A stretch of 43,624 nucleotides of DNA from a virus, in IMG/VR virus record IMGVR_UViG_3300018411_000036, positions 1 through 43,624 of that record, one strand, 5' to 3'. A model generated the notes under the pieces. The model searched no databases, was not told the origin of the DNA, and worked only from the letters and a program-made list of their open reading frames with translations. The position numbers were made by a program, and so were the translations under genes. The number at the start of each line of letters is the position of its first letter. The stretch's first letter is position 1. Below are positions 5,970-43,493 of the stretch, piece by piece.

Positions 5970-7604
5970 ATGTCTCGTTTTCAGCAAACTGCTCTGACCT
6001 CTTGTGACAGTTACAAACTCGGCCACGCTGACCAATATCCGCCTGGCACCACGAAAGTGTACAGCAACTTCACCCCTCGCTCGATTCGTCACTTGAACGT
6101 CCCCGATCAATACAAACCGACGGAGATTGTGTGGTTTGGTCTGCAAATCTTCCTGCAAGACCTCGTTGCTGTGTGGGATGAGACTTTCTTCAAGCAGCCG
6201 AAAGAAGCAGTGGTAGCAGAGTTCGTTGAGATCGCTGGTCCTTTCTGCGGCCCGAACGGCTTTGCTGGTAAGCGGTTGGAGCAACTGCATGATCTGGGCT
6301 ATCTGCCGCTGGAGATCCGTGCTCTGCCTGAAGGTTCGCTTGTCCCTGCAAACGTCCCTGTGTTGACGATCACAAACACAGTCCCTGAGGCATTCTGGCT
6401 GCCAAACTTCATGGAAGCGTGGATGTCTGCTGATCTGTGGAAGGCTTCAACCTCTGCCACGATCTCGTACGCATATCGCCAGATCATCAACAAGTACGCT
6501 GACCTCACAGGTGGCAGCAAAGAGTTCATTATGTGGCAAGGCCACGACTTCAGCCCTCGTGGTATGTCTGGGATTGCTGACGCTGCTCGTTCTGGCGCTG
6601 GACACTTGCTGTCGTTCGCTGGTACTGACAACATTCCTGCTGTCAAGTTGGTTCGTGATGTCTATGACGGCAAGGCAACTTTCATTGGCGGTTCTGTCCC
6701 CGCTACCGAGCACAGCGTGATGTGTGCTGGTGGCAAGGAAACCGAGATTGAGACGTTCCGCCGCCTGATCAAGACGTACCCGTCTGGCGTTCTGTCGATC
6801 GTCTCTGACACTTGGGACTTCTGGAATGTGATCACAAACATTGCTCAAGAACTGAAGCAAGAGATCCTCGACCGCACCCCTGACGAACTCGGTCTGGCAA
6901 AGGTTGTCTTCCGACCTGACAGTGGCGATCCTGTTCGGATTATTGCTGGCTATGAAGCACTCAATGTCTCATCTCTGGATGACGCTCAACTGTTCAAGGC
7001 GCTCGCTGATGAGCGGTTTGATGGTGTCGTTCGCTGCCAAGGGAAGTACTACACCGTTGAACGGATCGACGGCGAATGGTGCGATGAGGTTGAGGTGAAA
7101 GAGATTGCTGCTGCTGTTACAGAAGGTGCTGTCGTTACGCTATGGAAGGGATTTGGCGGCACCGCTAACGATCTCGGCTACAAGACGCTGAACCAGCGCG
7201 TTGGCCTGATCTACGGCGACAGCATCACGCCTGCTCGTGCTGATGAGATCCTTCGCCGGCTTGCTGCCAAAGGGTTCGCGTCTGACAACATTGTGTTTGG
7301 CATTGGGTCGTACACGTTCCAGTACAACACCCGCGATTCGCTAGGGTTTGCGATGAAGGCAACGTATGTTGAGATCGATGGCAAGCCTGTCGAAATCTTC
7401 AAGGACCCTGTGACCGACAACGGTACCAAAAAGTCTGCGAAGGGGTTGCTGCAGGTCGTCCGTCAAGGCAACCGTCTCGCATTGCGCGATCAAGTATCGT
7501 GGGCGGAAGAAAAGCAGGGCGAGATGCGTACCGTGTTCCTCAACGGCAAAATCACCGTTCAGGAATCGTTCGCTGACATTCGCTCACGACTTGGCATCAT
7601 GTAA
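5970..7604 (+). CDS. nadV: nicotinamide phosphoribosyltransferase (NAMPT/NadV)
   Basis: Converts nicotinamide and PRPP into nicotinamide mononucleotide, the rate-limiting salvage step to NAD+. Family signatures: N-terminal LTSCDSYKLGHADQYPPGT, GGSVPATEHSVM near residue 240, and the phosphoribosyl-binding VFRPDSGDPVRI near residue 310. The length (544) is slightly above the usual 460-500, with an insertion around residues 340-380. Phage prs-nadV pairs are known to rebuild NAD+ during infection, including where host defences deplete it. Confidence 0.93.
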   Translation: MSRFQQTALTSCDSYKLGHADQYPPGTTKVYSNFTPRSIRHLNVPDQYKPTEIVWFGLQIFLQDLVAVWDETFFKQPKEAVVAEFVEIAGPFCGPNGFAGKRLEQLHDLGYLPLEIRALPEGSLVPANVPVLTITNTVPEAFWLPNFMEAWMSADLWKASTSATISYAYRQIINKYADLTGGSKEFIMWQGHDFSPRGMSGIADAARSGAGHLLSFAGTDNIPAVKLVRDVYDGKATFIGGSVPATEHSVMCAGGKETEIETFRRLIKTYPSGVLSIVSDTWDFWNVITNIAQELKQEILDRTPDELGLAKVVFRPDSGDPVRIIAGYEALNVSSLDDAQLFKALADERFDGVVRCQGKYYTVERIDGEWCDEVEVKEIAAAVTEGAVVTLWKGFGGTANDLGYKTLNQRVGLIYGDSITPARADEILRRLAAKGFASDNIVFGIGSYTFQYNTRDSLGFAMKATYVEIDGKPVEIFKDPVTDNGTKKSAKGLLQVVRQGNRLALRDQVSWAEEKQGEMRTVFLNGKITVQESFADIRSRLGIM

Positions 7605-17843: not shown

Positions 17844-17850
17844 AGATAAT

Positions 17851-17973
17851 GTGCAAGTGCTGAAACGGGTAGACAGATAGGAGGCATCCTATGCAAAGGG
17901 TTCGAGTCCCTTGGAAGTCCGCAAGACTTTTAGTACGGTACTGCTGGTGGTTCAAATCCACCCTTGCACACCA
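17851..17973 (+). tRNA. tRNA-like gene with two T-arm motifs and nested acceptor helices
   Basis: Outer acceptor GTGCAAG/CTTGCAC plus A-CCA, a Leu-type D arm, and a T arm (TTCAAAT). Inside lies a second T arm (AAGGG-TTCGAGT-CCCTT) followed by GGAAGTC, a CGCAA linker and GACTTTT; those two strands pair completely with two G-T pairs. So one acceptor-like helix is nested in another. A 5-bp stem with loop GGCA follows the D arm. Confidence 0.45.
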
Positions 17974-18187: not shown

Positions 18188-18324
18188 AGTTAAAGGAAGT
18201 TTACAGCAAACACTACTTTATAGGAACCGGCGACGAAAGTCTTGGAGGTGCAAGTCCTCCCCGATACGGAAACGGATCGGTGGCGAAATAGTAAACGCAC
18301 TGGTATAAGTAACAACTTCCTGAT
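18188..18324 (+). tRNA. circularly permuted tRNA-Leu(TAG) candidate
   Basis: The order is 3' half, linker, 5' half. From 18221: TAGGA, ACCGG, variable arm GAC-GAAA-GTC, T arm GGAGG-TGCAAGT-CCTCC, 3' acceptor CCGATAC (18261-18267), linker GGAAAC, 5' acceptor GGATCGG (18274-18280), a Leu-type D arm, CTGGT. Acceptor strands pair at six of seven positions. Joining the outer ends after ...CTGGTAT (18306) and before TAGGA (18221) gives loop ATTAGGA with U33 and anticodon TAG and a full CTGGT/ACCGG stem. The outer flanks GGAAGTT and AACTTCC pair, holding the two ends together. Confidence 0.65.
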
Positions 18325-18414: not shown

Positions 18415-18431
18415 AACAACAGAGGATAATG

Positions 18432-19037
18432 ATGGGACACAAAATTCTTTTTGCCGATTTTGACGGCCCGTTGTGGTCCGACAGGGTGATTAGATATCAC
18501 CCTGACAACACGAATGCAACGCACCCGAAGCGTGAAATCATTGCGGAAGCAATGCGTCAGAACGGCGACACGATGGCTGCTCACTGTCTGACATACTGGA
18601 AGATGGACGAGGTTGCTGTCGGGATGCTGAACTGGCTGATGGAATACGATCACTTCTACACTGTTGTGTCGAGCTCGTGGAGAGAGTTATGCACCCGTGA
18701 TACAATCGAGTGCATCTTTCGAATGAACGACCTACGGTTGGAGCTGCATGATGACTGGGCTACAGATGCCCACACCAGCAAATATGTTGGTGGTTGGTAT
18801 GGCACCAGTTCATCTAGCGACAATCGGCTAAAACAAATCGCTAGATGGGTTGACAAAAACAAAGAAATCGTGGATGATTATCTCATCTTGGATGATCCGA
18901 GTTCTGGTGGAAGTTTGATTGATGAAAATGCAGTGCGGTGGGCTAAATTAGACCCCTCGCGAGTTGTGATCGTTGATCCGTTCATTGGCATGGAGATCAG
19001 CCACTTTGAGCAGATGAAGCGAGTTTTTTGCGAATGA
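18432..19037 (+). CDS. HAD-domain protein of the Swiss-Army-Knife RNA-repair type
   Basis: Protein of 202 residues. Motif I ILFADFDGPLWSDRV near residue 5, motif II VVSSSWRELC near residue 77, a catalytic-type Lys, and DYLILDDPSSGG near residue 150. The DFDGPL, SSWR and ILDD combination fits the HAD family found in Swiss Army Knife RNA-repair proteins, where it is proposed to act on RNA ends. Two ATGs are adjacent; the second (18432) has better spacing from AGAGGA. Placement among tRNA genes supports a tRNA-related role. Confidence 0.75.
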   Translation: MGHKILFADFDGPLWSDRVIRYHPDNTNATHPKREIIAEAMRQNGDTMAAHCLTYWKMDEVAVGMLNWLMEYDHFYTVVSSSWRELCTRDTIECIFRMNDLRLELHDDWATDAHTSKYVGGWYGTSSSSDNRLKQIARWVDKNKEIVDDYLILDDPSSGGSLIDENAVRWAKLDPSRVVIVDPFIGMEISHFEQMKRVFCE

Positions 19038-19129: not shown

Positions 19130-19216
19130 AGTTAAAGGATAGGTTCAGCAAGTCATACAACATGGCTGTCCGTTTGCTTTCCGGACTAAAATATAAGGAG
19201 CAAAACTATCCTGTTA
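19130..19216 (+). repeat. CAGCAA hairpin element (copy 2)
   Basis: Starts right after the tRNA-Tyr CCA: GTTAAAGGATAGG, TTCAGCAA, about 55 nt, then CTATCCTGTT. GGATAG pairs with CTATCC. Same design as elements at 18188, 36155, 36988 and 41293. The interior contains a smaller hairpin GTCCG/CGGAC. Confidence 0.6.
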
Positions 19217-19325
19217 TCCCTGCGTTGCAGTACCCTTGCTCATTCATCCGAGCGTAGGCAACCCAACGCAGTCACAGTCAAAGATGAGGCCCGGCTCTAT
19301 CGCGACTTAATACTCCGGGAATTTT
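19217..19325 (+). ncRNA. structured spacer
   Basis: No gene. CTGCGTT pairs with AACGCAG about 40 nt downstream, and CCCGG/CCGGG forms a second hairpin before tRNA-Leu. Confidence 0.4.
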
Positions 19326-19402
19326 GCACTGGTGACGGAATTGGCATACGTGTTGGTTTTAGGTACCAAATTTTGTGGGTTCGAGTCCCACCCGGTGCAC
19401 CA
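19326..19402 (+). tRNA. tRNA-Leu(TAG)
   Basis: Acceptor GCACTGG/CCGGTGC, Leu-type D arm, anticodon arm TTGGT-TTTAGGT-ACCAA, T loop TTCGAGT, CCA encoded. The variable region is short (about 5 nt) for a Leu tRNA. Confidence 0.8.
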
Positions 19403-20005
19403 TATTGAAATGCATTCATCACTGGTCGTTAGCCTTGAGAGGTTGGTAGCCTGGACTACACGACGAAGCAGCCTAACCAGCGCGGTGAAAAACCCTATTG
19501 GAGGGTGAGAGTGTATTTCAATATGGTAAGTACCTCTAGATCCTGATCGAACTAGGCTGCTAGTCACAGTAATAGCGAAAGGGGAATCGGAGAGAAGTCC
19601 TGACAATAGCCCTGACCGGCAGACGATAGGGACACCATATTGAAGAACATATCCTCCACTACTGTGGGCCCACGGTAGATTATTCGTGAAGGTTGTTGGT
19701 GATCAGATAAGCCAAGTGTTCTTCAATATGGTAACTGAGAAAGGCGTCACCACTAGAGCGACGATGCGCACTGTCTGTACGTTACGGTGACAGACTGAAT
19801 TAGACAGGTTCGTGCATCTGCCGTCCGGGAATTCTCAACCCGGTGTTCTTTACGATAACAAGAACGTATATTGAAGTGCATTGAGCATCCCACTATCGTG
19901 TAGCGACGGTAGATTGGAACAAGATGTCTCCGCAACCTACTCCACGCTACAAGGGGCAAGGGAGAACGCTAGATGTAGGGTGAGTCTAGTCAATGTGTTT
20001 CAATA

Positions 20006-20093
20006 TGGTAAGTGGTCTGTGCGAAAACGCCCGGTGAGGGCAGATCCGTGAAAGCGGGAGGCAAAAATTGCCGGTTCAAGTCCGGCGCCATAT
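20006..20093 (+). tRNA. tRNA-like module between cassettes
   Basis: Good T arm GCCGG-TTCAAGT-CCGGC followed by GCCATAT, which pairs with the upstream ATATGGT as an acceptor stem. The interior forms four small hairpins (for example GCCC-GGTGA-GGGC and GGCAA-AAA-TTGCC) rather than a normal D and anticodon arm. Confidence 0.35.
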
Positions 20094-20214
20094 TGAAGTA
20101 TTATCAACGAGTGGAAAGACGCAAGTCGAATGGTGATCTAGGAGTCCGGCTTAACGTTGGTTGGACATGCGATCTGCCTCTCCGGGCTGCAAGAGGGTTG
20201 ATAATACTTCAATA

Positions 20215-20314
20215 TGGTTTCTGATAAAATGATCGCCGATTGGCGCGATTGGTGGTTCGAGTCCACTCCTGTCCATTCCGGGCGGGTAGACAAACGGTAA
20301 AGTTGATGGAGCCA
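20215..20314 (+). tRNA. permuted tRNA-like module, class II
   Basis: Order: variable-type arm ATCGCC-GATT-GGCG, T arm GGTGG-TTCGAGT-CCACT, 3' acceptor CCTGTCC (20268-20274), linker ATTCC, 5' acceptor GGGCGGG (20280-20286), D arm starting TAGACAAACGGTAAAGT. The acceptor strands pair at all seven positions. The outer flanks GGAGCCATATTGAA and TTCAATATGGTTTC pair over 14 positions. The anticodon is not resolved. Confidence 0.5.
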
Positions 20315-20412
20315 TATTGAAGAGCATTAAAGACCAGGACCGGGAAGTCCATGGCATTTGACTTGTTCACGTGCCTAGTTTAAGATCCTCAAAACATTAG
20401 TGTTCTTCAATA

Positions 20413-20642
20413 TGGTATGCCGGTTGCGGTATATCAGAATGGTGCGTCCAGCATCGTATTGAGCATAAGTTGGATACTCGCAGTCGAAGCGATTGTAGGT
20501 ATGTGTTATCGGTGCCACTTAATATCTGGTGCTCCAGACGCAAGGTAACACTAGCTGCTTGCATAGCAAAGAGGGGCAGGAGGGGATGTAGCTACCCCGA
20601 TCGTTCCAAGACTGCAATAGTTGAAACGCCAACAACTGGACA
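20413..20642 (+). ncRNA. structured spacer inside the cassette array
   Basis: About 230 nt without a gene. A tRNA-like GGGGATGTAGCTACCCC hairpin is visible near 20582; no full cloverleaf could be built. Confidence 0.3.
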
Positions 20643-20961
20643 CTATATTCAACGACATTGTGGGAGCACTGTGTTGGATTGGGAAGGTTTGACCCCGACT
20701 CGCCATACCACTCAGTACCCAGCGGCCGCAGCAGTGTTGTTGAATATAGTTGAAGGGTGGTATGTATGTGGTTCCGGGTCCAGAGATAGTATCAAGGCGG
20801 GGGTTGGCTCCTAAAGGAGGACAAGCATCTTACCATATACAAATGCACTGTTTAGTTGTATTGATAGCGGCCTCTATTAACGATTCAATCTTAACGGGTT
20901 GAATATGGCAAGAGTAAGACGTGGACAACGGCGTCATAGTCGGCAGTGCATTTGTATATGG

Positions 20962-21089
20962 CAAGCATCTTGCCATTAACAATGGTTGCAACCAGGAATA
21001 AAGCCTGTCTTTGACAGTCAATCAAGGCTCTACCCCATCCGTTAAATGTGCTCAGGAGAGTGACACTATATTCGCGACCGTCACCTTTA
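20962..21089 (+). other. spacer with direct repeat flanking a cassette
   Basis: CAAGCATCTTGCCAT at 20962 repeats CAAGCATCTTACCAT at 20822, so the cassette at 20833-20961 is flanked by a 15-bp near-perfect direct repeat. No gene is seen in the remainder. Confidence 0.35.
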
Positions 21090-21132
21090 TTTATAACATA
21101 TGAAAACGTATTTCGTATTTTTTCATATGTTA
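21090..21132 (+). repeat. AT-rich perfect inverted repeat
   Basis: TATAACATATGAAAA pairs with TTTTCATATGTTATA (15 bp) around a 13-nt loop holding CGTATTTCGTATT. It could be a processing hairpin; it lacks a trailing T run. Confidence 0.6.
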
Positions 21133-21156
21133 TACAGAGTAATTAACTGTATGATA

Positions 21157-21310
21157 GAATCCGAGATCGTAACTCGGATGACCCGTGGTAGTTTAAGGTA
21201 AAACGCAGAGAGATGTTGGTTCGATGCCAACCTTGGGGTCCGCCCCGAGTAGCTTAAATGGACAAAGCGCGGCGCGATGAGGGTTTCGAAGTCCCTCCCA
21301 CAATGGGTCA
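21157..21310 (+). tRNA. scrambled tRNA-like modules with juxtaposed acceptor strands
   Basis: An isolated anticodon-arm-like hairpin ATCCGAG-ATCGTAA-CTCGGAT (would read CGT, Thr) is followed by a D arm, then T arm GTTGG-TTCGATG-CCAAC, 3' acceptor CTTGGGG (21232-21238), linker TCCG, 5' acceptor CCCCGAG (21243-21249), D arm TAGCTTAAATGGACAAAGC, and another T-like arm. The acceptor strands pair fully. TGACCC and GGGTCA close the whole. The D and T arms are separated by only about ten bases, so neither half has a normal anticodon arm in place. Confidence 0.45.
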
Positions 21311-21399
21311 CTATATTGAAGAATCTTGTGTAAGATGGAGTAGCTCTCCCGTTATTTGGTAGCACCGATAAGATCAGGATTCTTCAATATGGTTGCAGC

Positions 21400-21480: not shown

Positions 21481-21492
21481 AATAGATTCATT

Positions 21493-21527
21493 GGGGGTGT
21501 AGCTCACCTGGGAGAGCGTAGAGAATA
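21493..21527 (+). pseudogene. 5' half of a split tRNA-Ala
   Basis: GGGGGTG acceptor strand and a canonical D arm (TAGCTCACCTGGGAGAGCG), then the sequence leaves tRNA form. Its acceptor strand pairs at all seven positions with TACCTCC at 22102-22108, 600 bp downstream, beyond an HNH gene and an intact tRNA-Ala. Confidence 0.75.
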
Positions 21528-21565
21528 CCTAAATCGCATAAATAAATGCGATAGCGGAGAACTCT

Positions 21566-22009
21566 ATGAATAACGGAAAATATTATACTCTAGAATATAA
21601 ACAAAAGCAAGAAGAAAAGGTTGACAGACTTTATGGTCCTATTTTAGAGCATAAGAAAGTTTGTCAATGCTGTGGCAAAGAGTTTATATTTGAAGGTAGA
21701 TTAAAAACTAAAAAGTATGAGGATGCAAAGTTCTGCTCAAGAAGTTGTGCTAATAATAGGCAAGCTTGGTGGAATGACAATGCTACTCATTACAAAACAA
21801 TAGCATTACAACATCATGATCATAAGTGTGTTGTGTGCGGATTTGATAAGATTGTTGCTATTCATCATATTGATGAGAATAAGAAAAACAACAATCCCTC
21901 TAATCTAATACCGTTATGTCCAAATCATCACGAGATGGTACATAGCAAATGGAAAGACGAAGTTATTCCATATATAATGGAATGGCAGGAACAATGGGCT
22001 GTTAGTTAA
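21566..22009 (+). CDS. HNH homing endonuclease in a tRNA-Ala gene
   Basis: Protein of 147 residues. Residues 33-60 form a zinc finger (VCQCCGKEFIFEG ... KFCSRSC); the HNH core is HKCVVCGFDKIVAIHHIDEN then NLIPLCPNHHEMVH. Much richer in A+T than its neighbours, a sign of recent transfer. Upstream, ATCGCAT/ATGCGAT forms a hairpin with AAATAA in the loop, before GGAG. The last codons lie inside the 5' end of an intact tRNA-Ala, and the gene plus that tRNA split another tRNA-Ala into halves. Confidence 0.88.
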   Translation: MNNGKYYTLEYKQKQEEKVDRLYGPILEHKKVCQCCGKEFIFEGRLKTKKYEDAKFCSRSCANNRQAWWNDNATHYKTIALQHHDHKCVVCGFDKIVAIHHIDENKKNNNPSNLIPLCPNHHEMVHSKWKDEVIPYIMEWQEQWAVS

Positions 22010-22069
22010 ATGGGATAACATCGGCTTTGCAAGCCGAGATTGAGAGTTCGATTCTCTCACGGTCCACCA
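21996..22069 (+). tRNA. tRNA-Ala(TGC), overlapping the endonuclease gene
   Basis: Acceptor GGGCTGT/ACGGTCC, D arm TTAGTTAAATGGGATAACA, anticodon arm TCGGC-TTTGCAA-GCCGA, T loop TTCGATT, CCA encoded. The first 14 bases are the 3' end of the HNH reading frame. Confidence 0.9.
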
Positions 22070-24071: not shown

Positions 24072-24578
24072 ATGATCACATCATCCGAATTGTTAGCATT
24101 TGCTTACCACCCCGTCGCGTACGAGCAACGGTTAGTCAACATCATCATTCCAGACGGCAGACAAGTTCTGCTGCTCAGCCCCAGCGAACTCGCGTCGCAC
24201 CCTCTAAACCCCACAAACGCCCCTGTTACGATTAAGATCGAGGGAATGGAGCGTTACAGCAACCAGCTGTGGGAGCAAGCTCAAGAACTTGCGTTTCGAT
24301 ACGGACACGACGGTCCTATCACCTGCCACGCGTTTATATCACCTGTAAACGGCGCCACTTTCGGTATCCATACCGATCCAGACAACGTGATCATCTATTG
24401 CGTTGAGGGAACAAAAACAATGGAGATTGGAGGCGACTTGTACCGCTTGCAGCCTGGTGAGTACGTCCACATTCCGTATGATACACCGCACCGCGCAATC
24501 AACGAGCACTCCTCTGTGATGTTGTCTTTTGGGCTCGAACGGTACTATAATGACAAAATGTCAAGCGAGGGTCGTTAA
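24072..24578 (+). CDS. cupin/JmjC-like protein, putative 2OG-Fe(II) hydroxylase
   Basis: Protein of 168 residues. Residues 85-160 carry a double-stranded beta-helix: NGATFGIHTDPDNVIIYCVE with the H-x-D pair, IGGDLYRLQPGEYVHIPYDT, then PHRAINEHSSVMLSFGLER with the distal His. This matches the iron-binding facial triad of JmjC-type hydroxylases, some of which modify ribosomal proteins and peptides. ATG 24072 is chosen because the longer frame would run through tRNA-Leu. First gene of the radical SAM operon; its stop overlaps the next start (ATGA). Substrate unknown; the Cys-His repeat protein two genes on is a candidate. Confidence 0.7.
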   Translation: MITSSELLAFAYHPVAYEQRLVNIIIPDGRQVLLLSPSELASHPLNPTNAPVTIKIEGMERYSNQLWEQAQELAFRYGHDGPITCHAFISPVNGATFGIHTDPDNVIIYCVEGTKTMEIGGDLYRLQPGEYVHIPYDTPHRAINEHSSVMLSFGLERYYNDKMSSEGR

Positions 24579-25648
24579 TGAACTGGATGTTCTATCTCAA
24601 AACCACGGAAACGTGTAACCTAAACTGCAAGCATTGTTTCACCAACGGCGTGAACGGTGCAAAAATCTATTGGGATCACCTCAAGGTTGCACAGTGGGTT
24701 GAGCACTTCGTTGATACACAGATGCACGAAGGCGACAGTCTGCATTGTGAGTTTCATGGTGGAGAACCGTTCCTTGCTGACATCAACCAGCTTCGTGGTG
24801 TTGTCGCAGCAGTCAAACCACACCACCCAAACATCACTTTCGGCATCACAACGAACCTTGTGATCAAGCTGACAGATGAGCACTTTGCGTTTATTGAGCA
24901 AGACCTCGGCAAACGAATTGGCACGTCGTGGGATCCAAAAATTCGCTTCGAGAACGACAAACAGCAAGCGTTGTGGTTGAAAAACGTCAAGACCTTGCTT
25001 GAGCGCGGCAACGTTGTTCGCCTATTCATCAGCGTCACAAAAGACACGATAGACATTGAGCCGATCATGCTGCTGTCATGGATCAAAGCGCTTGGCGTGC
25101 AGGAAGTGTCATTCGAACGGCTGACGCGAAACGGTAATGCAAACCTCCATCCAGACATCTTCCCGTCTAATGTTGAGCAGGACGCTTGGTTCTTGAAGAT
25201 GCACCAACAAAGCGAGCAGTACGACGCTCGTAGCTGGTTTGAAAACGACTTCCTCGAGACGGTCTACGCAAAATTCGAGACAGGATTCCGTTCAGGAGGC
25301 ACGTTCTGCCGTGATTGTGAGGAGAAGATTTTCACGCTGAATGCTGATGGTAAGATTTCAGGATGTCCTAACTCCGCTCCTGAGTTCTCGTATGGGACGA
25401 TTTATGACCCGCTCGATCAAATCCTCAACAGCCCAGTGCGTATAAATAACAGGGCTTGTGAAAAAAGTCGCAACCCTGTATGTTACACTTGCGAGGTTTT
25501 TCAATTTTGCGGAGGCGATTGCCACCAGCTGGCGTGGGACGGAGATATTTGCGGGGCACCGAAATCTTTGATGAAACACTTAGCAGGAGTTACAACACCG
25601 AAGCAGAAAACATGGATTATAAAGGACATTAGACATCATGCTCACTAA
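24578..25648 (+). CDS. radical SAM/SPASM protein 1
   Basis: Protein of 356 residues. N-terminal radical SAM cluster site TCNLNCKHC (Cys 13, 17, 20) and GGEP at 61-64, in a TIM-barrel-like order. C-terminal SPASM domain with many Cys: FCRDCEEK at 244/247, GCPNS at 263, CYTCEVFQFCGGDC at 302-315 and ICGAPK at 325, enough for two auxiliary 4Fe-4S clusters. SPASM enzymes modify peptides and proteins after translation (thioether, C-C, epimer formation). Directly upstream of and overlapping the gene for the CHxS-repeat protein, which makes that protein the likely substrate. Confidence 0.88.
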   Translation: MNWMFYLKTTETCNLNCKHCFTNGVNGAKIYWDHLKVAQWVEHFVDTQMHEGDSLHCEFHGGEPFLADINQLRGVVAAVKPHHPNITFGITTNLVIKLTDEHFAFIEQDLGKRIGTSWDPKIRFENDKQQALWLKNVKTLLERGNVVRLFISVTKDTIDIEPIMLLSWIKALGVQEVSFERLTRNGNANLHPDIFPSNVEQDAWFLKMHQQSEQYDARSWFENDFLETVYAKFETGFRSGGTFCRDCEEKIFTLNADGKISGCPNSAPEFSYGTIYDPLDQILNSPVRINNRACEKSRNPVCYTCEVFQFCGGDCHQLAWDGDICGAPKSLMKHLAGVTTPKQKTWIIKDIRHHAH

Positions 25649-26174
25649 CCCAATCAATAATGCAAACCTCGTTAATAGGTTTGCACAATACGTTCAGGCA
25701 ACAGCAAACAGTGGTATCAGCTGGGGGACAAACGCTGTGCCTTTTGCTGAATTTCCAGCTGGCCATTTCGGTGGCACCACAGCAGGTGCTGGTTTGTCAA
25801 TCAGCGGTCCGTCTGTCGGTGCAACAGGAACGCCTGTAACAGCAAGCACTATCTTTAACGTGTTGGTTGCAGAAACACGACTGTTTACAAACATTCGCTT
25901 GCTTCGCGCCCGCCGTAACGTTACTGGCATTGGTACTACTTACGACCAGACAGCTGTTGCGCATATGAACGTAAACCACCGCCAAGCTCTTGGTGCTACA
26001 GCAGCCCCCGGAATTGCTTCAGGGCAAACAATCACATCGAGCGGTCTGGAAACCTTCTTCAACAACCTACGTACAGCATACACCAACGCTAGAAACACTG
26101 TTGTACAAATTGATATTAACCTCTGCCACTCCAGCTGCCATGGCAGCTGCCACGGCTCACGCGCTAGGAGATAA
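25638..26174 (+). CDS. CHxS-repeat protein, probable substrate of the radical SAM system
   Basis: Protein of 178 residues. Residues 1-160 look like a folded, Gly/Ala/Thr-rich domain with no enzyme motif. The C-terminus ends CHSSCHGSCHGSRARR: three tandem Cys-His-x-Ser units (163-174) plus a basic tail. His-x-Ser and Cys-x-x-x repeats at the C-terminus of a protein beside SPASM enzymes are typical of ribosomally made, post-translationally modified peptides such as the His-Xaa-Ser systems. Whether this is a virion protein with a modified tip or a released peptide is unknown. The gene overlaps the SPASM gene by 11 bases. Confidence 0.75.
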   Translation: MLTNPINNANLVNRFAQYVQATANSGISWGTNAVPFAEFPAGHFGGTTAGAGLSISGPSVGATGTPVTASTIFNVLVAETRLFTNIRLLRARRNVTGIGTTYDQTAVAHMNVNHRQALGATAAPGIASGQTITSSGLETFFNNLRTAYTNARNTVVQIDINLCHSSCHGSCHGSRARR

Positions 26175-26175
26175 G

Positions 26176-26904
26176 ATGAAAACCGTAACGGTTACCGCCC
26201 CACTGTCGATTGATGACCTCAAGTTGTTTTATCTTGAGGACAAGAATGTTCTGTACATGATTGACTATGAGAAATCAACCCTAAAAGAGGGCAAGCTGAT
26301 TACATATCTGTCGAACCTCGATATTCCTGCTGACATCGACCTGTCCAATACTTGCGGACAGGATGTAGCACAACTGCTCGCTGCATACTTTCAGTCTGTA
26401 ACATTCTGCAACATTAACACACTCGAGCATTTGGCAATCGAAACGGTGTTGACAGCAGCTGGTGTTGTTACAACAGACAATCCTGCCGTTCAGCAAGTTG
26501 TTGATCAGCACAACGAACTGGTAATGAAGTGGGTGAAGATTCTACAAAGCCTGTCTGTGTACAACATGTCGATTGTTAAGGATGACAGCTTCAAGGAGTT
26601 CGCCAACTCATTCCCTGTTAATGACACGAAGTCGATCAATGGAATCAACTGGATCAGTCTGCTTAAACATCCACAGCTGTACCTGATTTTCTCAAAGATC
26701 GACCAGTCAACATTGGAATTCTATCCATACTATTTCAACGAGTACCTGTTCAAGTCTCACAGTCTGTATCACTACTGGGCGAACGAGAACAATCCATTGT
26801 TCTTGCTGACATACGGAATCGCAGAAGGGTTGATAAATACCGAAGAATATATTGACATGCGTAAGCAGTCAATTGAGGAGATTGATCGTGCTGCATCTAT
26901 TTAA
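26176..26904 (+). CDS. hypothetical protein of the radical SAM operon (A)
   Basis: Protein of 242 residues from ATG 26176, one base after the repeat protein's stop, with AGGAG upstream. Begins MKTVTVTAPLSIDDLKLFYL; the rest is mostly helical with a tyrosine-rich YYFNEYLFKSHSLYHYWANE near residue 195. No known domain. Position suggests a scaffold, recognition or partner protein for the repeat protein or its enzymes. Confidence 0.65.
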   Translation: MKTVTVTAPLSIDDLKLFYLEDKNVLYMIDYEKSTLKEGKLITYLSNLDIPADIDLSNTCGQDVAQLLAAYFQSVTFCNINTLEHLAIETVLTAAGVVTTDNPAVQQVVDQHNELVMKWVKILQSLSVYNMSIVKDDSFKEFANSFPVNDTKSINGINWISLLKHPQLYLIFSKIDQSTLEFYPYYFNEYLFKSHSLYHYWANENNPLFLLTYGIAEGLINTEEYIDMRKQSIEEIDRAASI

Positions 26905-27937
26905 ACGCGTATACGTCACAACCGACGCTGGTCTTGATATCACAAACAACCGCATTGTCATTTCGGCAGAGCACGGGTTCCCTATGTACCACCCTCTTGA
27001 GGAGTTCAAAGACGGCGGCAAGTTGCTCGGATACGGTCCTAACCTCGAGGGTGTGTACGAATCTATGCCTCGCGTGTCGAACTTCCCGCAGCTGATTGAA
27101 TTTCTGTACAATTATGACGATCGCGTTATCGTCTATGTTGACGGTCAGCAGTTTATGGAGTTCATGGCTCTGTGGCACAAAGCACTATTCAAGAACCCAA
27201 CGTCCTCGAGCACGTGGGACATTTTGAATGCTTACATTCGCAAACACGATCTGCAGCGCAACTGGAAGTTGAATGAATTCAGCGCAGGCGTTGCGTACAC
27301 GAATGTTAACGCCACAAGTTATGATGTTGTGTTCCAGCGTGCTGAAAAGCACGATCTGTCAGTTCTGGTGCAGTCTGCATATCAAGACCTCAGCTTTGAT
27401 ATCCTAATTGCTAACTACATCAACAACCCCACGAAGTTCACTGCACCAATGGCAGCCTGTATGCAGACTGTGTTGTTGAGAACCGTTGACGAAACGTTGA
27501 TTGAAGTCAAGCAAACATTCTACAAAGGACACACAAAGTCAGTGTTCCCGCGGTTTTCTGTTGGTTTGGAGTTTTTCGGCCAGTCTTCTCTGTACGTAGA
27601 AGAAGCGGTTGGTCAAGTGGGTTCAAAATCAAGCGTTGATATTCTGGGTGCTACTCAACAAGATGTGGATACCGCTATCCATATCGCAACAACGTTGTAT
27701 AGAGAGTGGGATCAGTTCAAAGACGATGCGACAATCATTTCTCGGCTCGACTTGGTCAACATCGTTCGCAACCCTCTAACACCGTCTGTCATTGACGCTG
27801 TATTGGAAATGGAGCGCTCAACTGGTTCCAACAACAGAATTTACGCGCCAACTGATGAAGAAAAATTGAACACGTTCTTCATTGATCTAGTTTTAGCAAC
27901 GCCGACTACAGAAATGGCAAAATATGAGATTGTCTGA
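26888..27937 (+). CDS. hypothetical protein of the radical SAM operon (B)
   Basis: Protein of 349 residues from a GTG with GAGGAG upstream, overlapping the previous gene by 17 bases. N-terminal beta-rich region (FKRVYVTTDAGLDITNNRIV, GYGPNLEGVYESM), then long helices. No metal or nucleotide site is recognised. Overlaps the oxygenase gene downstream. Role unknown; may bind the substrate or form part of the structure that is modified. Confidence 0.65.
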   Translation: MLHLFKRVYVTTDAGLDITNNRIVISAEHGFPMYHPLEEFKDGGKLLGYGPNLEGVYESMPRVSNFPQLIEFLYNYDDRVIVYVDGQQFMEFMALWHKALFKNPTSSSTWDILNAYIRKHDLQRNWKLNEFSAGVAYTNVNATSYDVVFQRAEKHDLSVLVQSAYQDLSFDILIANYINNPTKFTAPMAACMQTVLLRTVDETLIEVKQTFYKGHTKSVFPRFSVGLEFFGQSSLYVEEAVGQVGSKSSVDILGATQQDVDTAIHIATTLYREWDQFKDDATIISRLDLVNIVRNPLTPSVIDAVLEMERSTGSNNRIYAPTDEEKLNTFFIDLVLATPTTEMAKYEIV

Positions 27938-28580
27938 TGATTTGAAAGATCACAACGCTTTTTTTGATACTGGGTACTTTGTTGGAACAATAGATCCGTA
28001 TGTGATGAAGGCATTGTGGAGAGAAATCGAAATAACAAACTGGATTGAAGACCCTGATAACATATACAAGAAAATACCACACTGGTACTGCACTAACCTA
28101 ACAACGCCAATTGGTCAACTAGAGGCGTTTAGAGGTAAGTACGAGAAAGAGTTTGCAGAGCGAATTATGGAGAGAGCACCCCGATCGTTGATGGATGTTG
28201 CTAGTAAATTTTTTGCTTTTGATGAGAGATTTCAGTTCTTCAAGCGGTACTTTAACGATATTGAATTGACGAGTGTAGATTTGTGGAATGGTGCAGAAAA
28301 CATCGACTACCACTTTGACACAATCAACGGGTTCGATCTAGCGGTGTTGATTTACCTAACCGATCAACCGCAGTGGGATCCAAAATGGGGCGGTTCTTTG
28401 CGAATGAAGCGTGAATATCCACATCTTGGACTGCCAACTACAGATGAGATCGTCTATCCCACTTCTGGAACGTACGTACTATTTAACAACAAGACGCCGT
28501 TGTTGACACACAAGGTTGAGCCGTTGACAACCACCGACGTTAACAGGTATACTTTCACTTTCAACTATAACTTAAAATGA
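27924..28580 (+). CDS. 2OG-Fe(II) oxygenase A
   Basis: Protein of 218 residues with the 2-oxoglutarate/iron facial triad: H130-x-D132 in NIDYHFDTINGFDL, H196 in TPLLTHKVEP, and R208 in NRYTFTF for 2-oxoglutarate. The block WNGAEN ... YLTD ... W...WGGSL is shared with the C-terminal half of the protein at 29575, so the two are paralogues. Predicted to hydroxylate an amino acid side chain, in keeping with prolyl-hydroxylase-like phage enzymes. ATGA overlap with the next gene. Confidence 0.8.
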   Translation: MRLSDDLKDHNAFFDTGYFVGTIDPYVMKALWREIEITNWIEDPDNIYKKIPHWYCTNLTTPIGQLEAFRGKYEKEFAERIMERAPRSLMDVASKFFAFDERFQFFKRYFNDIELTSVDLWNGAENIDYHFDTINGFDLAVLIYLTDQPQWDPKWGGSLRMKREYPHLGLPTTDEIVYPTSGTYVLFNNKTPLLTHKVEPLTTTDVNRYTFTFNYNLK

Positions 28581-29578
28581 CGATAGCCCAACACATGCTG
28601 GACAATCACGATAAGCGCCCAGCCGCGGGTGAAATCATCGTGATCTTGTTCGAACAGTGCAATTTGTCGTGCTCGTTTTGTCACCAGAAACACGATGACA
28701 AGACAGGAATGGACTCGATCGTTGATAAGGTCGATCTTGTCAGACGAACAATTCCTATATTACGGAAGAAAGGCAAAACGCAATTTTCCGTTCACGTGAT
28801 GGGCGGCGAATTGTTTGCCGATGATATTCCTGACGAATTGTTTGAAAAGTACGACCGGTTTATTGATGATGTAAGAGAACTTCGGTCTGATGGCACTCAG
28901 GTTGACATATACTTCGTGTCAAACCTGATTTTTGATAACAGAGCAAGAATGGAGACATTTCTTGATAAACACCAAGACGTTCATCTTCTAACAAGTTTTG
29001 ACTTCGCTGGAAGGTTCAATGAAGCAAACAAGAAGATTTACTTTGACAACGTTCTCCATTTCGAAGACAGGATCGACAGCGTCAATGTGATCCTGTCAAA
29101 ACAGAACATTGAAAGGATGATCAAACAGCGCGATCCTGTGTTTGATTACCTGTATGACAAGGTTGAAGTGGTGTTTGATTACTATGGCCCTAAAGGTGCG
29201 AATGATCCTCACTTGCCAACAGATGTTCAGTTGAGACAGGGGCTGATTTACTTGTTCGACAACTACCCGAAAGTAATACCGGTAGCAAACTTCACATCTA
29301 AAACCAAGACTGTGATGAGCTGCATGGACACGTATACTGCCATGCCTAACGGCAAGGTTGGCGGATGTGGGATGTTTGAAAACACAACCAAAGTGATACC
29401 AATCAAACGTTCAATCGAACAAAAGTGGTTCGACAGCTACAATTGTTTTGAATGCGAACACTTTCAACGGTGCTCTTTCGGTTGCTTTATGAGCAACCAC
29501 ATAAATGATATGAGAACCCAGCAACAGTGCTGGCTAAAAGAAGTATATGACTACGTAGACGCAAAGGAAAAGGCATGA
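28577..29578 (+). CDS. radical SAM protein 2
   Basis: Protein of 333 residues. Cluster site QCNLSCSFC (Cys 28, 32, 35), MGGEL near 74, and a C-terminal Cys-rich region: SCMDTYTAMPNGKVGGCGMF, then NCFECEHFQRCSFGCFMSNH and a final Cys in QQQCWLKE. A SPASM-like or twitch-type auxiliary cluster is likely. Lies between the two paralogous oxygenases and overlaps both. Confidence 0.85.
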   Translation: MTIAQHMLDNHDKRPAAGEIIVILFEQCNLSCSFCHQKHDDKTGMDSIVDKVDLVRRTIPILRKKGKTQFSVHVMGGELFADDIPDELFEKYDRFIDDVRELRSDGTQVDIYFVSNLIFDNRARMETFLDKHQDVHLLTSFDFAGRFNEANKKIYFDNVLHFEDRIDSVNVILSKQNIERMIKQRDPVFDYLYDKVEVVFDYYGPKGANDPHLPTDVQLRQGLIYLFDNYPKVIPVANFTSKTKTVMSCMDTYTAMPNGKVGGCGMFENTTKVIPIKRSIEQKWFDSYNCFECEHFQRCSFGCFMSNHINDMRTQQQCWLKEVYDYVDAKEKA

Positions 29579-30684
29579 CAAAGCGACAAGTGTCTCTGAT
29601 TGAAGAGAACAAAGATTTTCTCGCCGATGAGGCGGTAACCTATTACAAAACAAAGTATCCAGACGTTGAATTTGACAAAGAATTCTGCCGCCGTGATGTT
29701 CATATGATTTGCGACATTATCTGCGGTGACCTTAACCTCGAAGGATTCGTCTCGTCAATCACGTTTGCTGCACCTGATGTAGAACATAACTATTATGCTC
29801 TGAACCGCTACAAAGGGTCGTTTCTTTGCCTAAGACAACAGAATGTTGTAACCTTTGATGTTGTTGCACACATTATCGGTATGATCAAAAAGGTTGCACA
29901 AAGTCAGCCTGTAGAGCCTGTGCTAGGCAAGCACGAACAGACGTTTGACCCTCAACGAAATCTTACTGCGGAACAGATTGCGGAGATTGGCGTGCTCGGC
30001 ACACTGATCGCAGGTAATGTTGGCAAAGGTAGGCCTCGTACTCAATACACTGTCATGATGGAGGATTACTTTGATAAGGGGTTCATCCACACAACGATCC
30101 CATCAGACATATACTCACGACTGTGGGAACAAGTGCACAAAACAAACTGGGTCGATGCTGTTCGGACAACATACAAGAAAAAACCCGACTGGTATTACGA
30201 GAACGAGAAGCACTATCTTGATCCTATGCTGCTTGATCGTCCAACACACGAGAAGCTATTTGCGAAAGAAACAATTTCGAACACACCGCCTGATCTGATC
30301 AAAATTGCTGAGGACCTGCTGAAAGATCCAATGTTTGATTACATCAAATTGTTCCGTCCGCCTAACCCTGTTGTGAAATGTGTGCACTTCTGGAACGGCA
30401 GCGAGAATAGCCCTCACCACAACGATGGTGTTGATGGCACAGACCTGATGATCTTCTGTTACCTGACCGACGAAGAAGGATGGGATGAGGAGTGGGGCGG
30501 TTACATCAACATGCTGAAGGAAGTTGGTGGTCAGTTCTACCACACAAAGAACATTATGCCGATTGACGGCACGATGGTTTGTGTCAACAACTCTGCACCA
30601 ATCTTCAAGCACGGCATTCGTGATTTAAAACGTAAAGACAAAAACCGCTACACATTTATTTTCCACTATACGTGGACGTTCTAA
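29575..30684 (+). CDS. 2OG-Fe(II) oxygenase B with extra N-terminal domain
   Basis: Protein of 369 residues. Residues 1-150 are a separate domain of unknown fold (CRRDVHMICDIICGDLNLEG and TFDVVAHIIGMIKK). Residues 160-369 are a 2OG-Fe(II) oxygenase: H282-x-D284 in NSPHHNDGVDGTDL, H346 in PIFKHGIRD, R358 in NRYTFIF. Paralogue of the gene at 27924. Two oxygenases plus a cupin suggest several hydroxylations of one or more substrates. Confidence 0.8.
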   Translation: MTKRQVSLIEENKDFLADEAVTYYKTKYPDVEFDKEFCRRDVHMICDIICGDLNLEGFVSSITFAAPDVEHNYYALNRYKGSFLCLRQQNVVTFDVVAHIIGMIKKVAQSQPVEPVLGKHEQTFDPQRNLTAEQIAEIGVLGTLIAGNVGKGRPRTQYTVMMEDYFDKGFIHTTIPSDIYSRLWEQVHKTNWVDAVRTTYKKKPDWYYENEKHYLDPMLLDRPTHEKLFAKETISNTPPDLIKIAEDLLKDPMFDYIKLFRPPNPVVKCVHFWNGSENSPHHNDGVDGTDLMIFCYLTDEEGWDEEWGGYINMLKEVGGQFYHTKNIMPIDGTMVCVNNSAPIFKHGIRDLKRKDKNRYTFIFHYTWTF

Positions 30685-30708
30685 CCCCACAGCTGTGAAG
30701 GGCTGACA

Positions 30709-31779
30709 ATGGATCTAATCATCAAGCCGACAGAGCGGTGCAACTTCAAGTGCACGTTCTGTTCGAGCACAAAGATTACTGACGACAACACCGTCGAACT
30801 TGATCACGAGTACATCTCCCAGTTCCTGAAAAGGTTTCCGGAGACGAAAACGATCATCGTCAACGGTGGCGATCCACTGATGATGCCTCCTGAATATTAC
30901 TGGAAGATCATCGAGCACCTTGACCTGATTGGGTCTAATGCTACGATCTCTTTCACATCCAACCTGTGGCCGTTTTACAAGAACCCTGAAAAGTGGGTTG
31001 ATCTGTTCAACCACCCACGGATGGGGATTGGCACATCATTTCAGTATGGTGGTGGGCGACTGAAAGGCGATCTAACGGAGTTTTCTGAAGAGGACTTCTG
31101 GAAAGTGTCCGACATGATGCTCGAACGTGTCGGTTATCGCCCCGACTTCATTTCTGTGATTACAGAAGAAAATGCTGATAGAGCGATTGAAAACGTGTTG
31201 TTGGCACAGAAAATGGGCGTGGTTTGCAAGCTAAATTACGCATTTTCGTCCGGTCCTCCGGTGAAATTTCGTGGAATTACGATGGGTCAGCAGGGCAAAC
31301 CATACATGCTCGCTGACATCTATGAAATCTATGTGGAGATCTGGAAGCGTGGGCTAACTGAGTGGGAATACAACACCAAACAGATGGTCAAACGGCTTCG
31401 TGGTGAAGGAACAACATGTCCGCAGAACCGCAAATGCGACGGAGGGATCCGGACGCTGCAACCATCTGGTGATTATTACAGCTGTGGTGCTTTTGGTGAT
31501 GATCGGATATACTCAATCGACTTCAAGCAAGAGATGTCTGGCGCGAAGGTGTTCCCGATCCGCAACGAGATGGAGCTGCAGTCACTGAAGCAGTCGTGCT
31601 TCACGTGCCCAATGTTTGAGATTTGTAACGGTTGTCGTAAAACGATCAAAGACTTGAAAGATCACGGAATGGTTGAGAAACACTGCTCAAAGATGAAAAC
31701 ACTTGCCGCTGACATCATTGAAGCAAACGGTCTGATAGGTGTGCTTCTTCCAACGCCTTATGTCAACGAACAAAAATGA
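30709..31779 (+). CDS. radical SAM/SPASM protein 3
   Basis: Protein of 356 residues. ERCNFKCTFC (Cys 11, 15, 18), NGGDP near 51, then a C-terminal SPASM-like region: GTTCPQNRKCDGG, YSCGAFGD, SCFTCPMFEICNGCRK and KHCSKM. A 24-base gap after the oxygenase gene is the largest internal gap of the operon. ATGA overlap with the next gene. Confidence 0.87.
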   Translation: MDLIIKPTERCNFKCTFCSSTKITDDNTVELDHEYISQFLKRFPETKTIIVNGGDPLMMPPEYYWKIIEHLDLIGSNATISFTSNLWPFYKNPEKWVDLFNHPRMGIGTSFQYGGGRLKGDLTEFSEEDFWKVSDMMLERVGYRPDFISVITEENADRAIENVLLAQKMGVVCKLNYAFSSGPPVKFRGITMGQQGKPYMLADIYEIYVEIWKRGLTEWEYNTKQMVKRLRGEGTTCPQNRKCDGGIRTLQPSGDYYSCGAFGDDRIYSIDFKQEMSGAKVFPIRNEMELQSLKQSCFTCPMFEICNGCRKTIKDLKDHGMVEKHCSKMKTLAADIIEANGLIGVLLPTPYVNEQK

Positions 31780-32264
31780 TGTCATACAACTTCAAAAACG
31801 ACAACGGTCGCATCAATCAGGGGAGACCAGGGCTGAATGTGTTGATACCCCCCACAGATCCATTATTTAACACACAAGTAGAGAGCGGTGTGCAAAATTG
31901 TGTTTTTGCATTAGGTTGTAAAGGGTATATAACTTTGGGCAGCTGTGAAGGACATCCTCCAGAAGCGGATCCAACAAACGACACCTATTGGCACATCAGC
32001 ATAGCGTATGATAGTGATAGAGTGTTTGAGGTGTTTCAGCGGGCGATGAAGTGGTCATTCGTCTATGTCAAACACGACAGCACTTATCCGGCTGACCTAG
32101 ATTGGTTCAACAGAGTGTTTGAGCAGCGGTTCAACCAGTTTAACATTCTAACAATATACACGTCATCCAACACCGTCAAACGCAACCAGCTTGCAAAACG
32201 GTGTTTTGCAAAACATTGCCTTGCTAGAATCAACAAATTGCCCCTAGCATCACAAATAACATGA
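31776..32264 (+). CDS. SCEGH-motif protein
   Basis: Protein of 162 residues containing GCKGYITLGSCEGHPPEAD near residue 48; an S-C-E/Q-G-H motif occurs in small uncharacterised bacterial proteins, where the Cys and His could be catalytic or bind metal. The C-terminus is basic with further Cys and His (KRCFAKHCLARIN). Overlaps radical SAM genes on both sides, so it probably acts with them. Confidence 0.6.
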   Translation: MMSYNFKNDNGRINQGRPGLNVLIPPTDPLFNTQVESGVQNCVFALGCKGYITLGSCEGHPPEADPTNDTYWHISIAYDSDRVFEVFQRAMKWSFVYVKHDSTYPADLDWFNRVFEQRFNQFNILTIYTSSNTVKRNQLAKRCFAKHCLARINKLPLASQIT

Positions 32265-33172
32265 ATATTTCCATCAACCCGAGTTACTTCTGCAACTTCC
32301 GCTGTGACTTTTGCTACTTAACAGAACAACAACTTGGCGACACGAGCAAGATTTCACTTGAGCGTTTGGATGACTTGTTGGGTCAGGTCAAACAGCATAC
32401 TGACATCGCATGGGTTGATCTGTATGGTGGTGAAATTGGTGCGCTGAAGCGTGATTATTTTGATGGTCTCCGACACACAATCCGTCGTCATTACCACGGC
32501 AAGATCAGCGTTATCACGAACTTCTCAATGCTGCATACAGGGTTCTTTGAGGATGACTTCGTTCTCAGCGTCAGTTATGACTTTGAGGCGCGTGAGAAAT
32601 CTGATCGTGTGTTCCAAAACATGCTGCAAAGCCCTGTGCCAATCGCTGTATTGATCCTCGCAAGTCCAAAAGTGCTGGCAACGGACGTCAACTACATGAT
32701 CACAATGCTGAATATGTGCACATCTGTGACAAGCGTTGAGATCAAGCCGTACAGCACAAACCAAGCGAACAGTCACAATGTCACACATAAGGACTTTGAG
32801 CAGTTCGTGATGAAATGGATTGACAGTCCTGTTGACAAGCGTTTCCGGTTCATCAATGAGGACAAAATCAATGTGTGCTTAGATGGAGAGTACAACGCGT
32901 TCAGCGACGATCACGTCTACATCACACCGAATGGTAAATTTGGTGTGTTAGAGTTTGACCTCAATGACCGTGAGTTCTTTCTTGAATTAGACAGTTGGAA
33001 CGACTATATAATGTGGACGGAGAAAGAAAAGAACACAATCAGCAACATATGCAAAAAATGTGAGTATTTCGGTCACTGTTTAACAGAGCACTATCGCCCT
33101 GTTTATGACCTAACAAATTCGTGTAACGGCTACAAAGGACTACTGAACTGGTATGCAAGAGTGGAAAATTAG
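32261..33172 (+). CDS. radical SAM protein 4
   Basis: Protein of 303 residues. YFCNFRCDFC (Cys 11, 15, 18), YGGE near 53, and a short C-terminal Cys set: NICKKCEYFGHCLTEHYRP then NSCNGYKG. The auxiliary region is smaller than in proteins 1 and 3. Overlaps the next gene by 20 bases. Confidence 0.85.
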   Translation: MNISINPSYFCNFRCDFCYLTEQQLGDTSKISLERLDDLLGQVKQHTDIAWVDLYGGEIGALKRDYFDGLRHTIRRHYHGKISVITNFSMLHTGFFEDDFVLSVSYDFEAREKSDRVFQNMLQSPVPIAVLILASPKVLATDVNYMITMLNMCTSVTSVEIKPYSTNQANSHNVTHKDFEQFVMKWIDSPVDKRFRFINEDKINVCLDGEYNAFSDDHVYITPNGKFGVLEFDLNDREFFLELDSWNDYIMWTEKEKNTISNICKKCEYFGHCLTEHYRPVYDLTNSCNGYKGLLNWYARVEN

Positions 33173-43431: not shown

Positions 43432-43493
43432 AAAGCACATACATCTACAGATGATAGTAGTGAAGTAATATCTGCTTAATGTGTGCTTTTGAT
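43432..43493 (+). repeat. inverted-repeat cassette after the last CCA
   Basis: AAAAGCACAT pairs with ATGTGTGCTTTT; about 40 nt inside. Begins directly at a CCA, as in the main array. Nothing is recognised from 43494 to the end. Confidence 0.5.

What the first reader, a model, noticed from the sequence alone, without database searches (positions are those of the whole stretch)
20215..21310. Further loci with T arm, 3' acceptor, short linker, 5' acceptor, D arm in that order
At 20268-20286 (CCTGTCC/GGGCGGG) and 21232-21249 (CTTGGGG/CCCCGAG) all seven positions pair, with T-arm motifs just before and D-arm motifs just after. A similar facing pair exists at 17851-17973 (GGAAGTC/GACTTTT). Three or four repeats of the same improbable arrangement argue against chance.
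Basis: seen in the sequence. Interest (0 to 1): 0.82.

Follow-up and report, generated by a model that had tools for sequence, protein, structure and literature searches.

The report
Phage RNA with two tRNA heads
Inside a phage's cluster of tRNA genes lies a conserved RNA in which a second, upside-down tRNA shape replaces the part that would read codons, so it looks like a tRNA impostor rather than a working tRNA.

Summary
The arrangement is real. At 21180-21309 it belongs to a conserved RNA family without a curated Rfam match: 18 distinct sequences in 21 public viral contigs, nearly all in phage tRNA arrays. The RNA is double-headed. An outer tRNA-like half (acceptor stem with a fixed AAU bulge, D arm, T arm) has its anticodon arm replaced by a second, inverted tRNA-like module (T arm, 3' acceptor strand, 3-10 nt cap, 5' acceptor strand, D arm). 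All seven inner acceptor positions vary with compensation (113 of 119 cells paired). A two-hairpin leader also covaries. Rfam matches the inner module only to YrlA, the bacterial Y RNA tRNA mimic, far below threshold; the Ro-binding stem and Rsr/Ro60 were not found. At 20216-20313 a single inverted, class II-like module sits on a short stem, with one relative (L141). At 17850-17973 no relative was found and a damaged class II tRNA is an equal reading. These are best read as capped tRNA mimics, not permuted tRNA genes: no cap carries CCA and the double-headed RNA has no anticodon loop. A decoy role against tRNA-binding or tRNA-cleaving factors is inferred, not shown.

The parts
21132..21152 (+). 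leader hairpin 1 (ATACAG...CTGTAT, loop AGTAATTAA)
   Evidence: covarying helix in 16 distinct leaders
21159..21179 (+). leader hairpin 2 (ATCCGAG...CTCGGAT), abuts the core
   Evidence: covarying helix; other members have GGAAGTCATGACTCC or GGGAGTAATTAACCC here
21180..21309 (+). double-headed tRNA-like RNA, core
   Evidence: 17-sequence alignment, 96.3% of cells paired, 18 pairs with both sides changed; model R1 132.5 bits, members at least 113 bits, next best 35
21180..21187 (+). outer acceptor stem, 5' strand GACCCGTG
   Evidence: pairs with CAC + GGGTC
21191..21204 (+). outer D arm GTTTAAGGTAAAAC
   Evidence: 86.8% paired in the alignment
21205..21214 (+). joining strand J1 GCAGAGAGAT
   Evidence: takes the place of the 5' anticodon-stem strand; column pattern compatible with an antiparallel J1/J2 helix with tandem G.A pairs
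21215..21231 (+). inner T arm
   Evidence: 100% paired, 3 pairs changed on both sides
21232..21249 (+). inner acceptor stem CTTGGGG / cap TCCG / CCCCGAG
   Evidence: every position has double changes across relatives
21252..21268 (+). inner D arm GCTTAAATGGACAAAGC
   Evidence: 100% paired
21269..21278 (+). joining strand J2 GCGGCGCGAT
21279..21297 (+). outer T arm
   Evidence: 100% paired, 4 of 5 pairs changed on both sides
21299..21309 (+). outer acceptor stem, 3' strand CAC-AAT bulge-GGGTC
   Evidence: bulge AAT invariant in all 17 sequences
20216..20313 (+). single inverted tRNA-like module: stem GGTTTC/GGAGCC, hairpin, T arm 20251-20267, acceptor CCTGTCC/ATTCC/GGGCGGG 20268-20286, D arm 20289-20304
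   Evidence: sequence; relative in L141 with the same cap and acceptor but different T stem, hairpin and basal stem
17850..17973 (+). ambiguous: outer tRNA-Leu-like body with CCA around T-arm-like 17896-17912 and hairpin GGAAGTC/CGCAA/GACTTTT
   Evidence: sequence, fold; no relative found
18188..18321 (+). further inverted module (T arm GGAGGTGCAAGTCCTCC, acceptor-like hairpin CCGATACG-GAAA-CGGATCGG, D arm) inside a stem AGGAAGTT/AACTTCCT
   Evidence: sequence; model R1 15.2 bits

Best explanation
21180-21309 encodes a small structured RNA built from two tRNA elbows joined where an anticodon stem would be. The outer elbow carries the RNA's 5' and 3' ends on an acceptor-like stem with a fixed AAU bulge. 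The inner elbow is upside down and its acceptor stem is closed by a short cap, the same module order as in the bacterial Y RNA YrlA. Shown: secondary structure, covariation, two-hairpin leader, location in tRNA arrays, absence of an anticodon loop and of CCA in the caps. Inferred: it is cut out of the polycistronic tRNA transcript together with the neighbouring tRNAs, and its tRNA-like shape lets it occupy factors that grip the tRNA elbow and acceptor (modification enzymes, RNase P, PNPase-type exonucleases, or tRNA-cleaving defence nucleases), so that it acts as a non-cleavable tRNA decoy or adaptor during infection. 20216-20313 is a single-headed inverted module of the same building block. 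I put tRNA mimic rather than tRNA at about 0.85, and the decoy role specifically at about 0.3.
For: Seventeen sequences aligned: 33 pairs, 96.3% of cells paired, covariation score 0.481 against 0.181 for shuffles and at most 0.130 for slid partners; 18 pairs with both sides changed. RNAalifold recovers nearly all the same helices unprompted, all but the outer D arm. Inner acceptor: all seven positions change on both sides. Leader hairpins covary. Members score at least 113 bits and the next best locus 35. Rfam's only match to the inner module is YrlA RF02553, model 28-81, 27.3 bits here and 34.2 in L042. Caps: GTAA, GCAA (GNRA), TCCG, TACG (UNCG), none with CCA. Six distinct single-headed relatives keep the leader, AAU bulge, D and T arms but mostly have stub hairpins instead of a normal anticodon arm, so the anticodon side is dispensable. 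All annotated tRNAs within 1.5 kb are on the same strand, for the 15 distinct loci that have any. YrlA's tRNA-like domain is known to mimic D, T and acceptor arms and to be modified by TruB and DusA (PMC8394870), and has been proposed as a competitive inhibitor of an anticodon nuclease (PMC7790460).
Against: No expression data. No protein partner identified. TROVE/Ro60 absent from the 37 distinct records searched, though most are fragments. The YrlA match is far below Rfam's gathering score of 69. The decoy role rests on shape alone. Folding energy of the window's single sequence is unremarkable (z -0.98), although one relative reaches -2.7.
Confidence: 0.65

Rival explanations
1. Permuted tRNA genes: the inner linker is cut out by RNase P and a 3' nuclease, the anticodon side is joined by the phage RNA ligase, and working tRNAs result, as in red algae and some archaea.
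For: Order of parts is that of a permuted tRNA. The window encodes a T4 Rnl1-like RNA ligase at 1904-2806. In L141 the inverted module lies 3 nt after one tRNA's CCA and 4 nt before the next tRNA, and joining its ends would give a 7-nt loop GTATGTA on the stem GCCAA/TTGGC (my reading).
Against: No cap carries CCA, and caps include GNRA and UNCG tetraloops. The double-headed RNA has ten-nucleotide joining strands and no anticodon loop. The RNA ligase domain was found in only 1 of 23 records, the window itself. The joined L141 loop would have the anticodon ATG, which does not fit a leucine-type body.
Confidence: 0.12
2. Bona fide Y RNAs (YrlA) of a Ro60 ribonucleoprotein.
For: Same module order; Rfam YrlA is the only family that matches the inner module.
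Against: Only model positions 28-81 of 114 match in the window; no Ro-binding stem; no TROVE protein in the 37 distinct records searched; score far below the gathering cut-off.
Confidence: 0.08
3. RNA spacer with a processing role only: stable tRNA-like folds that recruit RNase P or other enzymes to separate tRNAs in the array.
For: Embedded in tRNA arrays between tRNAs and the CCATATTGAA...TTCAATATGG hairpins.
Against: Conservation of both heads, the AAU bulge and the leader loops is more than a spacer needs; many tRNAs in the same arrays have no such neighbour.
Confidence: 0.2
4. Chance juxtaposition of decayed tRNA pieces.
For: The array holds many tRNA fragments; 17850-17973 can be read as a damaged class II tRNA, with AAGGG-TTCGAGT-CCCTT as anticodon arm and GGAAGTC-CGCAA-GACTTTT as variable arm.
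Against: For 21180-21309 excluded by covariation in 17 sequences. For 20216-20313 unlikely because of L141. Open for 17850-17973.
Confidence: 0.03

Closest known systems
YrlA (Y RNA-like A), Rfam RF02553
   Same: inverted tRNA-like module: T arm, 3' acceptor strand, short cap, 5' acceptor strand, D arm; acceptor capped, anticodon side open
   Different: here the module sits in a second tRNA-like half rather than on a Ro-binding stem; no Rsr found; far below the gathering score
tRNA (RF00005)
   Same: outer half has acceptor stem, D arm with GG loop, T arm with TTCGA loop
   Different: AAU bulge in the acceptor stem, no anticodon arm, no conserved CCA; not called by ARAGORN at 21180-21309
permuted tRNA genes of algae and archaea
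   Same: order of the halves in the inner module
   Different: cap without CCA, no anticodon loop, nested in another tRNA-like fold
tmRNA (RF00023) and permuted tmRNA (RF04321)
   Same: tRNA-like domain without a normal anticodon arm
   Different: no match to either model at this locus at the gathering score, two elbows instead of one; a separate permuted tmRNA lies at 43370-43617

Membership tests
YrlA / bacterial Y RNA (RF02553) | tRNA-like module with T arm, capped acceptor stem and D arm | tested here: met
   window 21212-21268 aligns to model 28-81, E 0.007 in a 4 kb search; L042 34.2 bits
YrlA / bacterial Y RNA (RF02553) | score at or above the curated gathering cut-off of 69 bits | tested here: not met
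   27.3 bits
YrlA / bacterial Y RNA (RF02553) | long basal stem that binds Ro60/Rsr | tested here: not met
   model positions 1-27 and 82-114 are not matched in the window; an outer tRNA-like half lies there instead
YrlA / bacterial Y RNA (RF02553) | Rsr/Ro60 (TROVE) protein in the genome | tested here: inconclusive
   none in the 37 distinct records searched, but most are fragments and a host Rsr is possible
tRNA | anticodon arm with 7-nt loop | tested here: not met
   replaced by joining strands and the inverted module; mostly stub hairpins in the single-headed relatives
tRNA | found by tRNA gene finders | tested here: not met
   no ARAGORN call overlaps 21180-21309 or any of the distinct relatives; no Rfam tRNA match there at gathering score
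permuted tRNA gene | linker that holds a CCA end | tested here: not met
   0 of 17 caps contain CCA
permuted tRNA gene | circular intermediate joined at the anticodon | not testable with these tools
   needs RNA from infected cells
tmRNA | Rfam match to RF00023 or RF04321 at this locus | tested here: not met
   no match at the gathering score within 21180-21309, none listed there in the permissive search either

The most novel reading that the evidence does not exclude
A phage-specific RNA family in which two tRNA elbows are fused back to back into one molecule that lacks an anticodon and works as a bivalent tRNA mimic, for example holding two copies of a tRNA-binding host or defence protein at once. 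In the same kind of array, inverted single modules such as L141's may be circularised by RNA ligase.
Probability: 0.3. Interest if true: 0.88.

Novelty: new variant of a known kind. Interest (0 to 1): 0.72.

Why it matters
tRNA mimicry in bacteria is known from tmRNA and YrlA, each with one tRNA-like domain. A conserved RNA with two facing tRNA-like domains, found in 21 public phage contigs and without a curated Rfam match, would be a new architecture. It offers a ready test of whether phage tRNA arrays hold decoys for tRNA-targeting defences. It also shows that tRNA gene finders overlook structured RNAs in such arrays.

Tried and rejected
1) Y RNA proper: TROVE search negative in two sets. 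2) Isolate phages: blastn 'distant' of 21130-21312 against 50,697 phage records gave no match. 3) Bacterial genomes: the one hit of the family pattern in GTDB contigs (L140, Planctomycetota MAG) has no T arms and is chance. 4) Frame TTTTAGG-N6-TACAGCAA...CCTGTT seen around some inverted modules (L062, L064, L052): the strict pattern hit only two chance sequences, so its extent is unknown. 5) L142, found with the D-arm pattern of 20216-20313, is an ordinary class II tRNA. 6) RNA ligase as a correlate of the double-headed RNA: only the window has the Pfam domain. 7) Relatives of 17850-17973: none among the fetched loci. 8) The primary YrlA papers (Chen 2014, Wang 2018) are not held in the library, so YrlA features were taken from PMC8394870 and PMC7790460. 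9) Searches of held papers for phage tRNA-like noncoding RNAs and for permuted tRNA with phage listed nothing that by title or abstract describes this RNA; most were seen only as abstracts.

Full report
The window is a 43.6 kb fragment of a phage genome from a metagenome (virus record) with 42 tRNA genes called by ARAGORN and a permuted tmRNA at 43370-43617. A near-identical contig is public: IMGVR_UViG_3300018405_000038, 99.97% over 14.9 kb.

Observation. The three facing pairs are present and pair at seven of seven positions. Of 49 T arms on the + strand, three are followed by such a pair across a 3-5 nt linker, against 0.06 expected when downstream sequences are swapped among T arms. With wider linkers the excess is smaller (4 against 0.8). 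The count alone would not carry the claim, so comparative evidence was sought.

What 21180-21309 is. Reading outwards from the facing pair, the inner T arm, acceptor strands and D arm are themselves enclosed by an outer D arm on the left, an outer T arm on the right, and an outer stem GACCCGTG / CAC-AAT-GGGTC. A pattern for the outer part (CCGTGRTAGT, gap, CCACAATGGRTC) found 20 contigs among 2.9 million viral contigs, one of them the window's near-identical contig. L042 adds one with a different D arm. This gives 18 distinct sequences; 17 were aligned (core identity 59-99%, median 73%) and L122 is the eighteenth. In the alignment 33 pairs are formed in 96.3% of cells; 18 pairs change on both sides; the covariation score is 0.481, against 0.181 in shuffles and 0.130 at best for slid partners. 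RNAalifold finds the same helices unprompted, except the outer D arm. At the inner acceptor every position changes on both sides somewhere, for example CTTGGGG/CCCCGAG, CTGCTCC/GGGGCAG, CCGGTCT/AGGCCGG, ACGTCAG/CTGGCGT and CCCGTCC/GGGCGGG; 113 of 119 cells pair, against at most 96 in 2000 whole-strand shuffles. A covariance model separates members (113-142 bits) from everything else in 0.95 Mb (35 bits and below); the members scored there were among those it was built from.

Further anatomy. Upstream lie two hairpins that also covary (94.2% of cells paired, 11 pairs with double changes). Their loops resemble each other (AGTAATTAA, AGTCATGA). The AAU bulge in the outer stem is invariant. Between D arm and T arm on either side lie strands of about ten nucleotides with the same consensus, GCAGNGARAU. 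Their columns fit an antiparallel junction with C/U-G, G-C or A.C, and tandem G.A pairs, but this is a reading of columns, not a test. The caps of the inner acceptor are 3-10 nt long, include GNRA and UNCG tetraloops and never contain CCA. Fifteen of the 17 distinct loci have annotated tRNAs within 1.5 kb, all on the same strand. Most are flanked by the hairpin CCATATTGAA...TTCAATATGG, which the window shares with more than a hundred other stretches of viral contigs, nearly all in tRNA arrays.

Single-headed relatives. Six distinct loci (L013, L028/L121, L091, L117, L144, L145) keep leader hairpins, the outer stem with the AAU bulge, the D arm and the T arm, but have only a short hairpin in place of the inverted module, mostly without a seven-nucleotide loop. 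The outer half is therefore a tRNA-like RNA in its own right, and the anticodon side is where the inverted module was gained or lost. Direction of change is not known.

The other two places. 20216-20313 holds one inverted module with a class II flavour: an extra hairpin in the place of a long variable arm, and a D arm TAGACAAACGGTAAAGT that also occurs in an ordinary class II tRNA in L142. L141 holds a relative with the same acceptor and cap but a different basal stem (TTGGC/GCCAA), hairpin and T stem, placed 3 nt after one tRNA's CCA and 4 nt before the next tRNA. 17850-17973 has a complete tRNA-Leu-like outer body ending in CCA. Its inside can be read either as an inverted module or as an anticodon arm followed by a long variable arm with insertions. 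Without relatives this cannot be decided. A further inverted module lies at 18188-18321.

Comparison with what is known. Only YrlA in Rfam 15 matches the inner module, and only its tRNA-like part (model 28-81 of 114, 27.3 bits, cut-off 69). One locus elsewhere, L062, aligns over the full YrlA model at 29.3 bits. YrlA is described as a stem that tethers Rsr plus a domain resembling the D, T and acceptor arms that is modified by TruB and DusA (PMC8394870). It has been suggested to inhibit an anticodon nuclease competitively (PMC7790460). The present RNA resembles YrlA's tRNA-like domain in shape but is not filed as a YrlA: the Ro-binding stem is not there, the score is far below the cut-off, and no TROVE protein was found in 37 distinct records. 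Some jumbo phages do carry TROVE proteins (PMC7824862).

Mechanism. Shown: fold, conservation, setting. Inferred: the RNA is released from the tRNA transcript and, having elbows and acceptor-like stems but no anticodon, engages factors that recognise tRNA by those parts. Phage tRNAs that evade tRNA-cleaving defences are established (PMC11455837 and references there), which makes a decoy plausible, but nothing here tests it. Rivals are permuted tRNA genes, a processing spacer, and true Y RNAs; each has a stated refuting experiment.

Limits. Homologues come from contigs that are mostly fragments. Literature was searched only in the held open-access library. No transcript data were available.

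Noticed in passing
19400-21392: Array of eight hairpins with arms like CCATATTGAAG/CTTCAATATGG separating tRNA-like segments. The same hairpin (consensus CCATATTGAARCACAYT...ARTGTGYTTCAATATGG) occurs in at least 119 stretches of viral contigs, nearly all in tRNA arrays. Several interiors (E1, E3, E5, E6, E8) have relatives of about 80% identity in other contigs.
   Followed up: partly
19743-19865: Segment of about 124 nt between two hairpins that is 92% identical in L133 and is not called as a tRNA; unknown conserved element.
   Followed up: no
18188-18321 and 19131-19217: Frame AGGNNNNN(U)NCAGCAA...NNNNNCCTG, also in L050, L052, L062, L064 and L122, sometimes with an inverted tRNA-like module inside. 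No Rfam family named for the frame.
   Followed up: partly
L141, about 7050-7140 (-): Inverted class II-like module lying exactly between two tRNAs; joining its ends would give a 7-nt anticodon-like loop on a 5-bp stem.
   Followed up: partly
43370-43617: Permuted tmRNA (RF04321, 105.8 bits) in a phage contig.
   Followed up: no
24578-33172: Four paralogous radical SAM proteins (phrog_1802) interspersed with other genes, one of them 2OG-Fe(II) oxygenase-like.
   Followed up: no
21490-22069: HNH endonuclease gene next to the 5' part of a tRNA (GGGGGTGTAGCTCACCTGGGAGAGC), possibly a homing insertion in a tRNA gene.
   Followed up: no
1904-2806 and 18429-19037: T4 Rnl1-like RNA ligase and a HAD_SAK_2 RNA-repair-type protein in the same contig.
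   Followed up: partly
21092-21134: A+T-rich inverted repeat TATAACATATGAAAA...TTTTCATATGTTATA just upstream of the leader, where other members have the CCATATTGAA-type hairpin.
   Followed up: no
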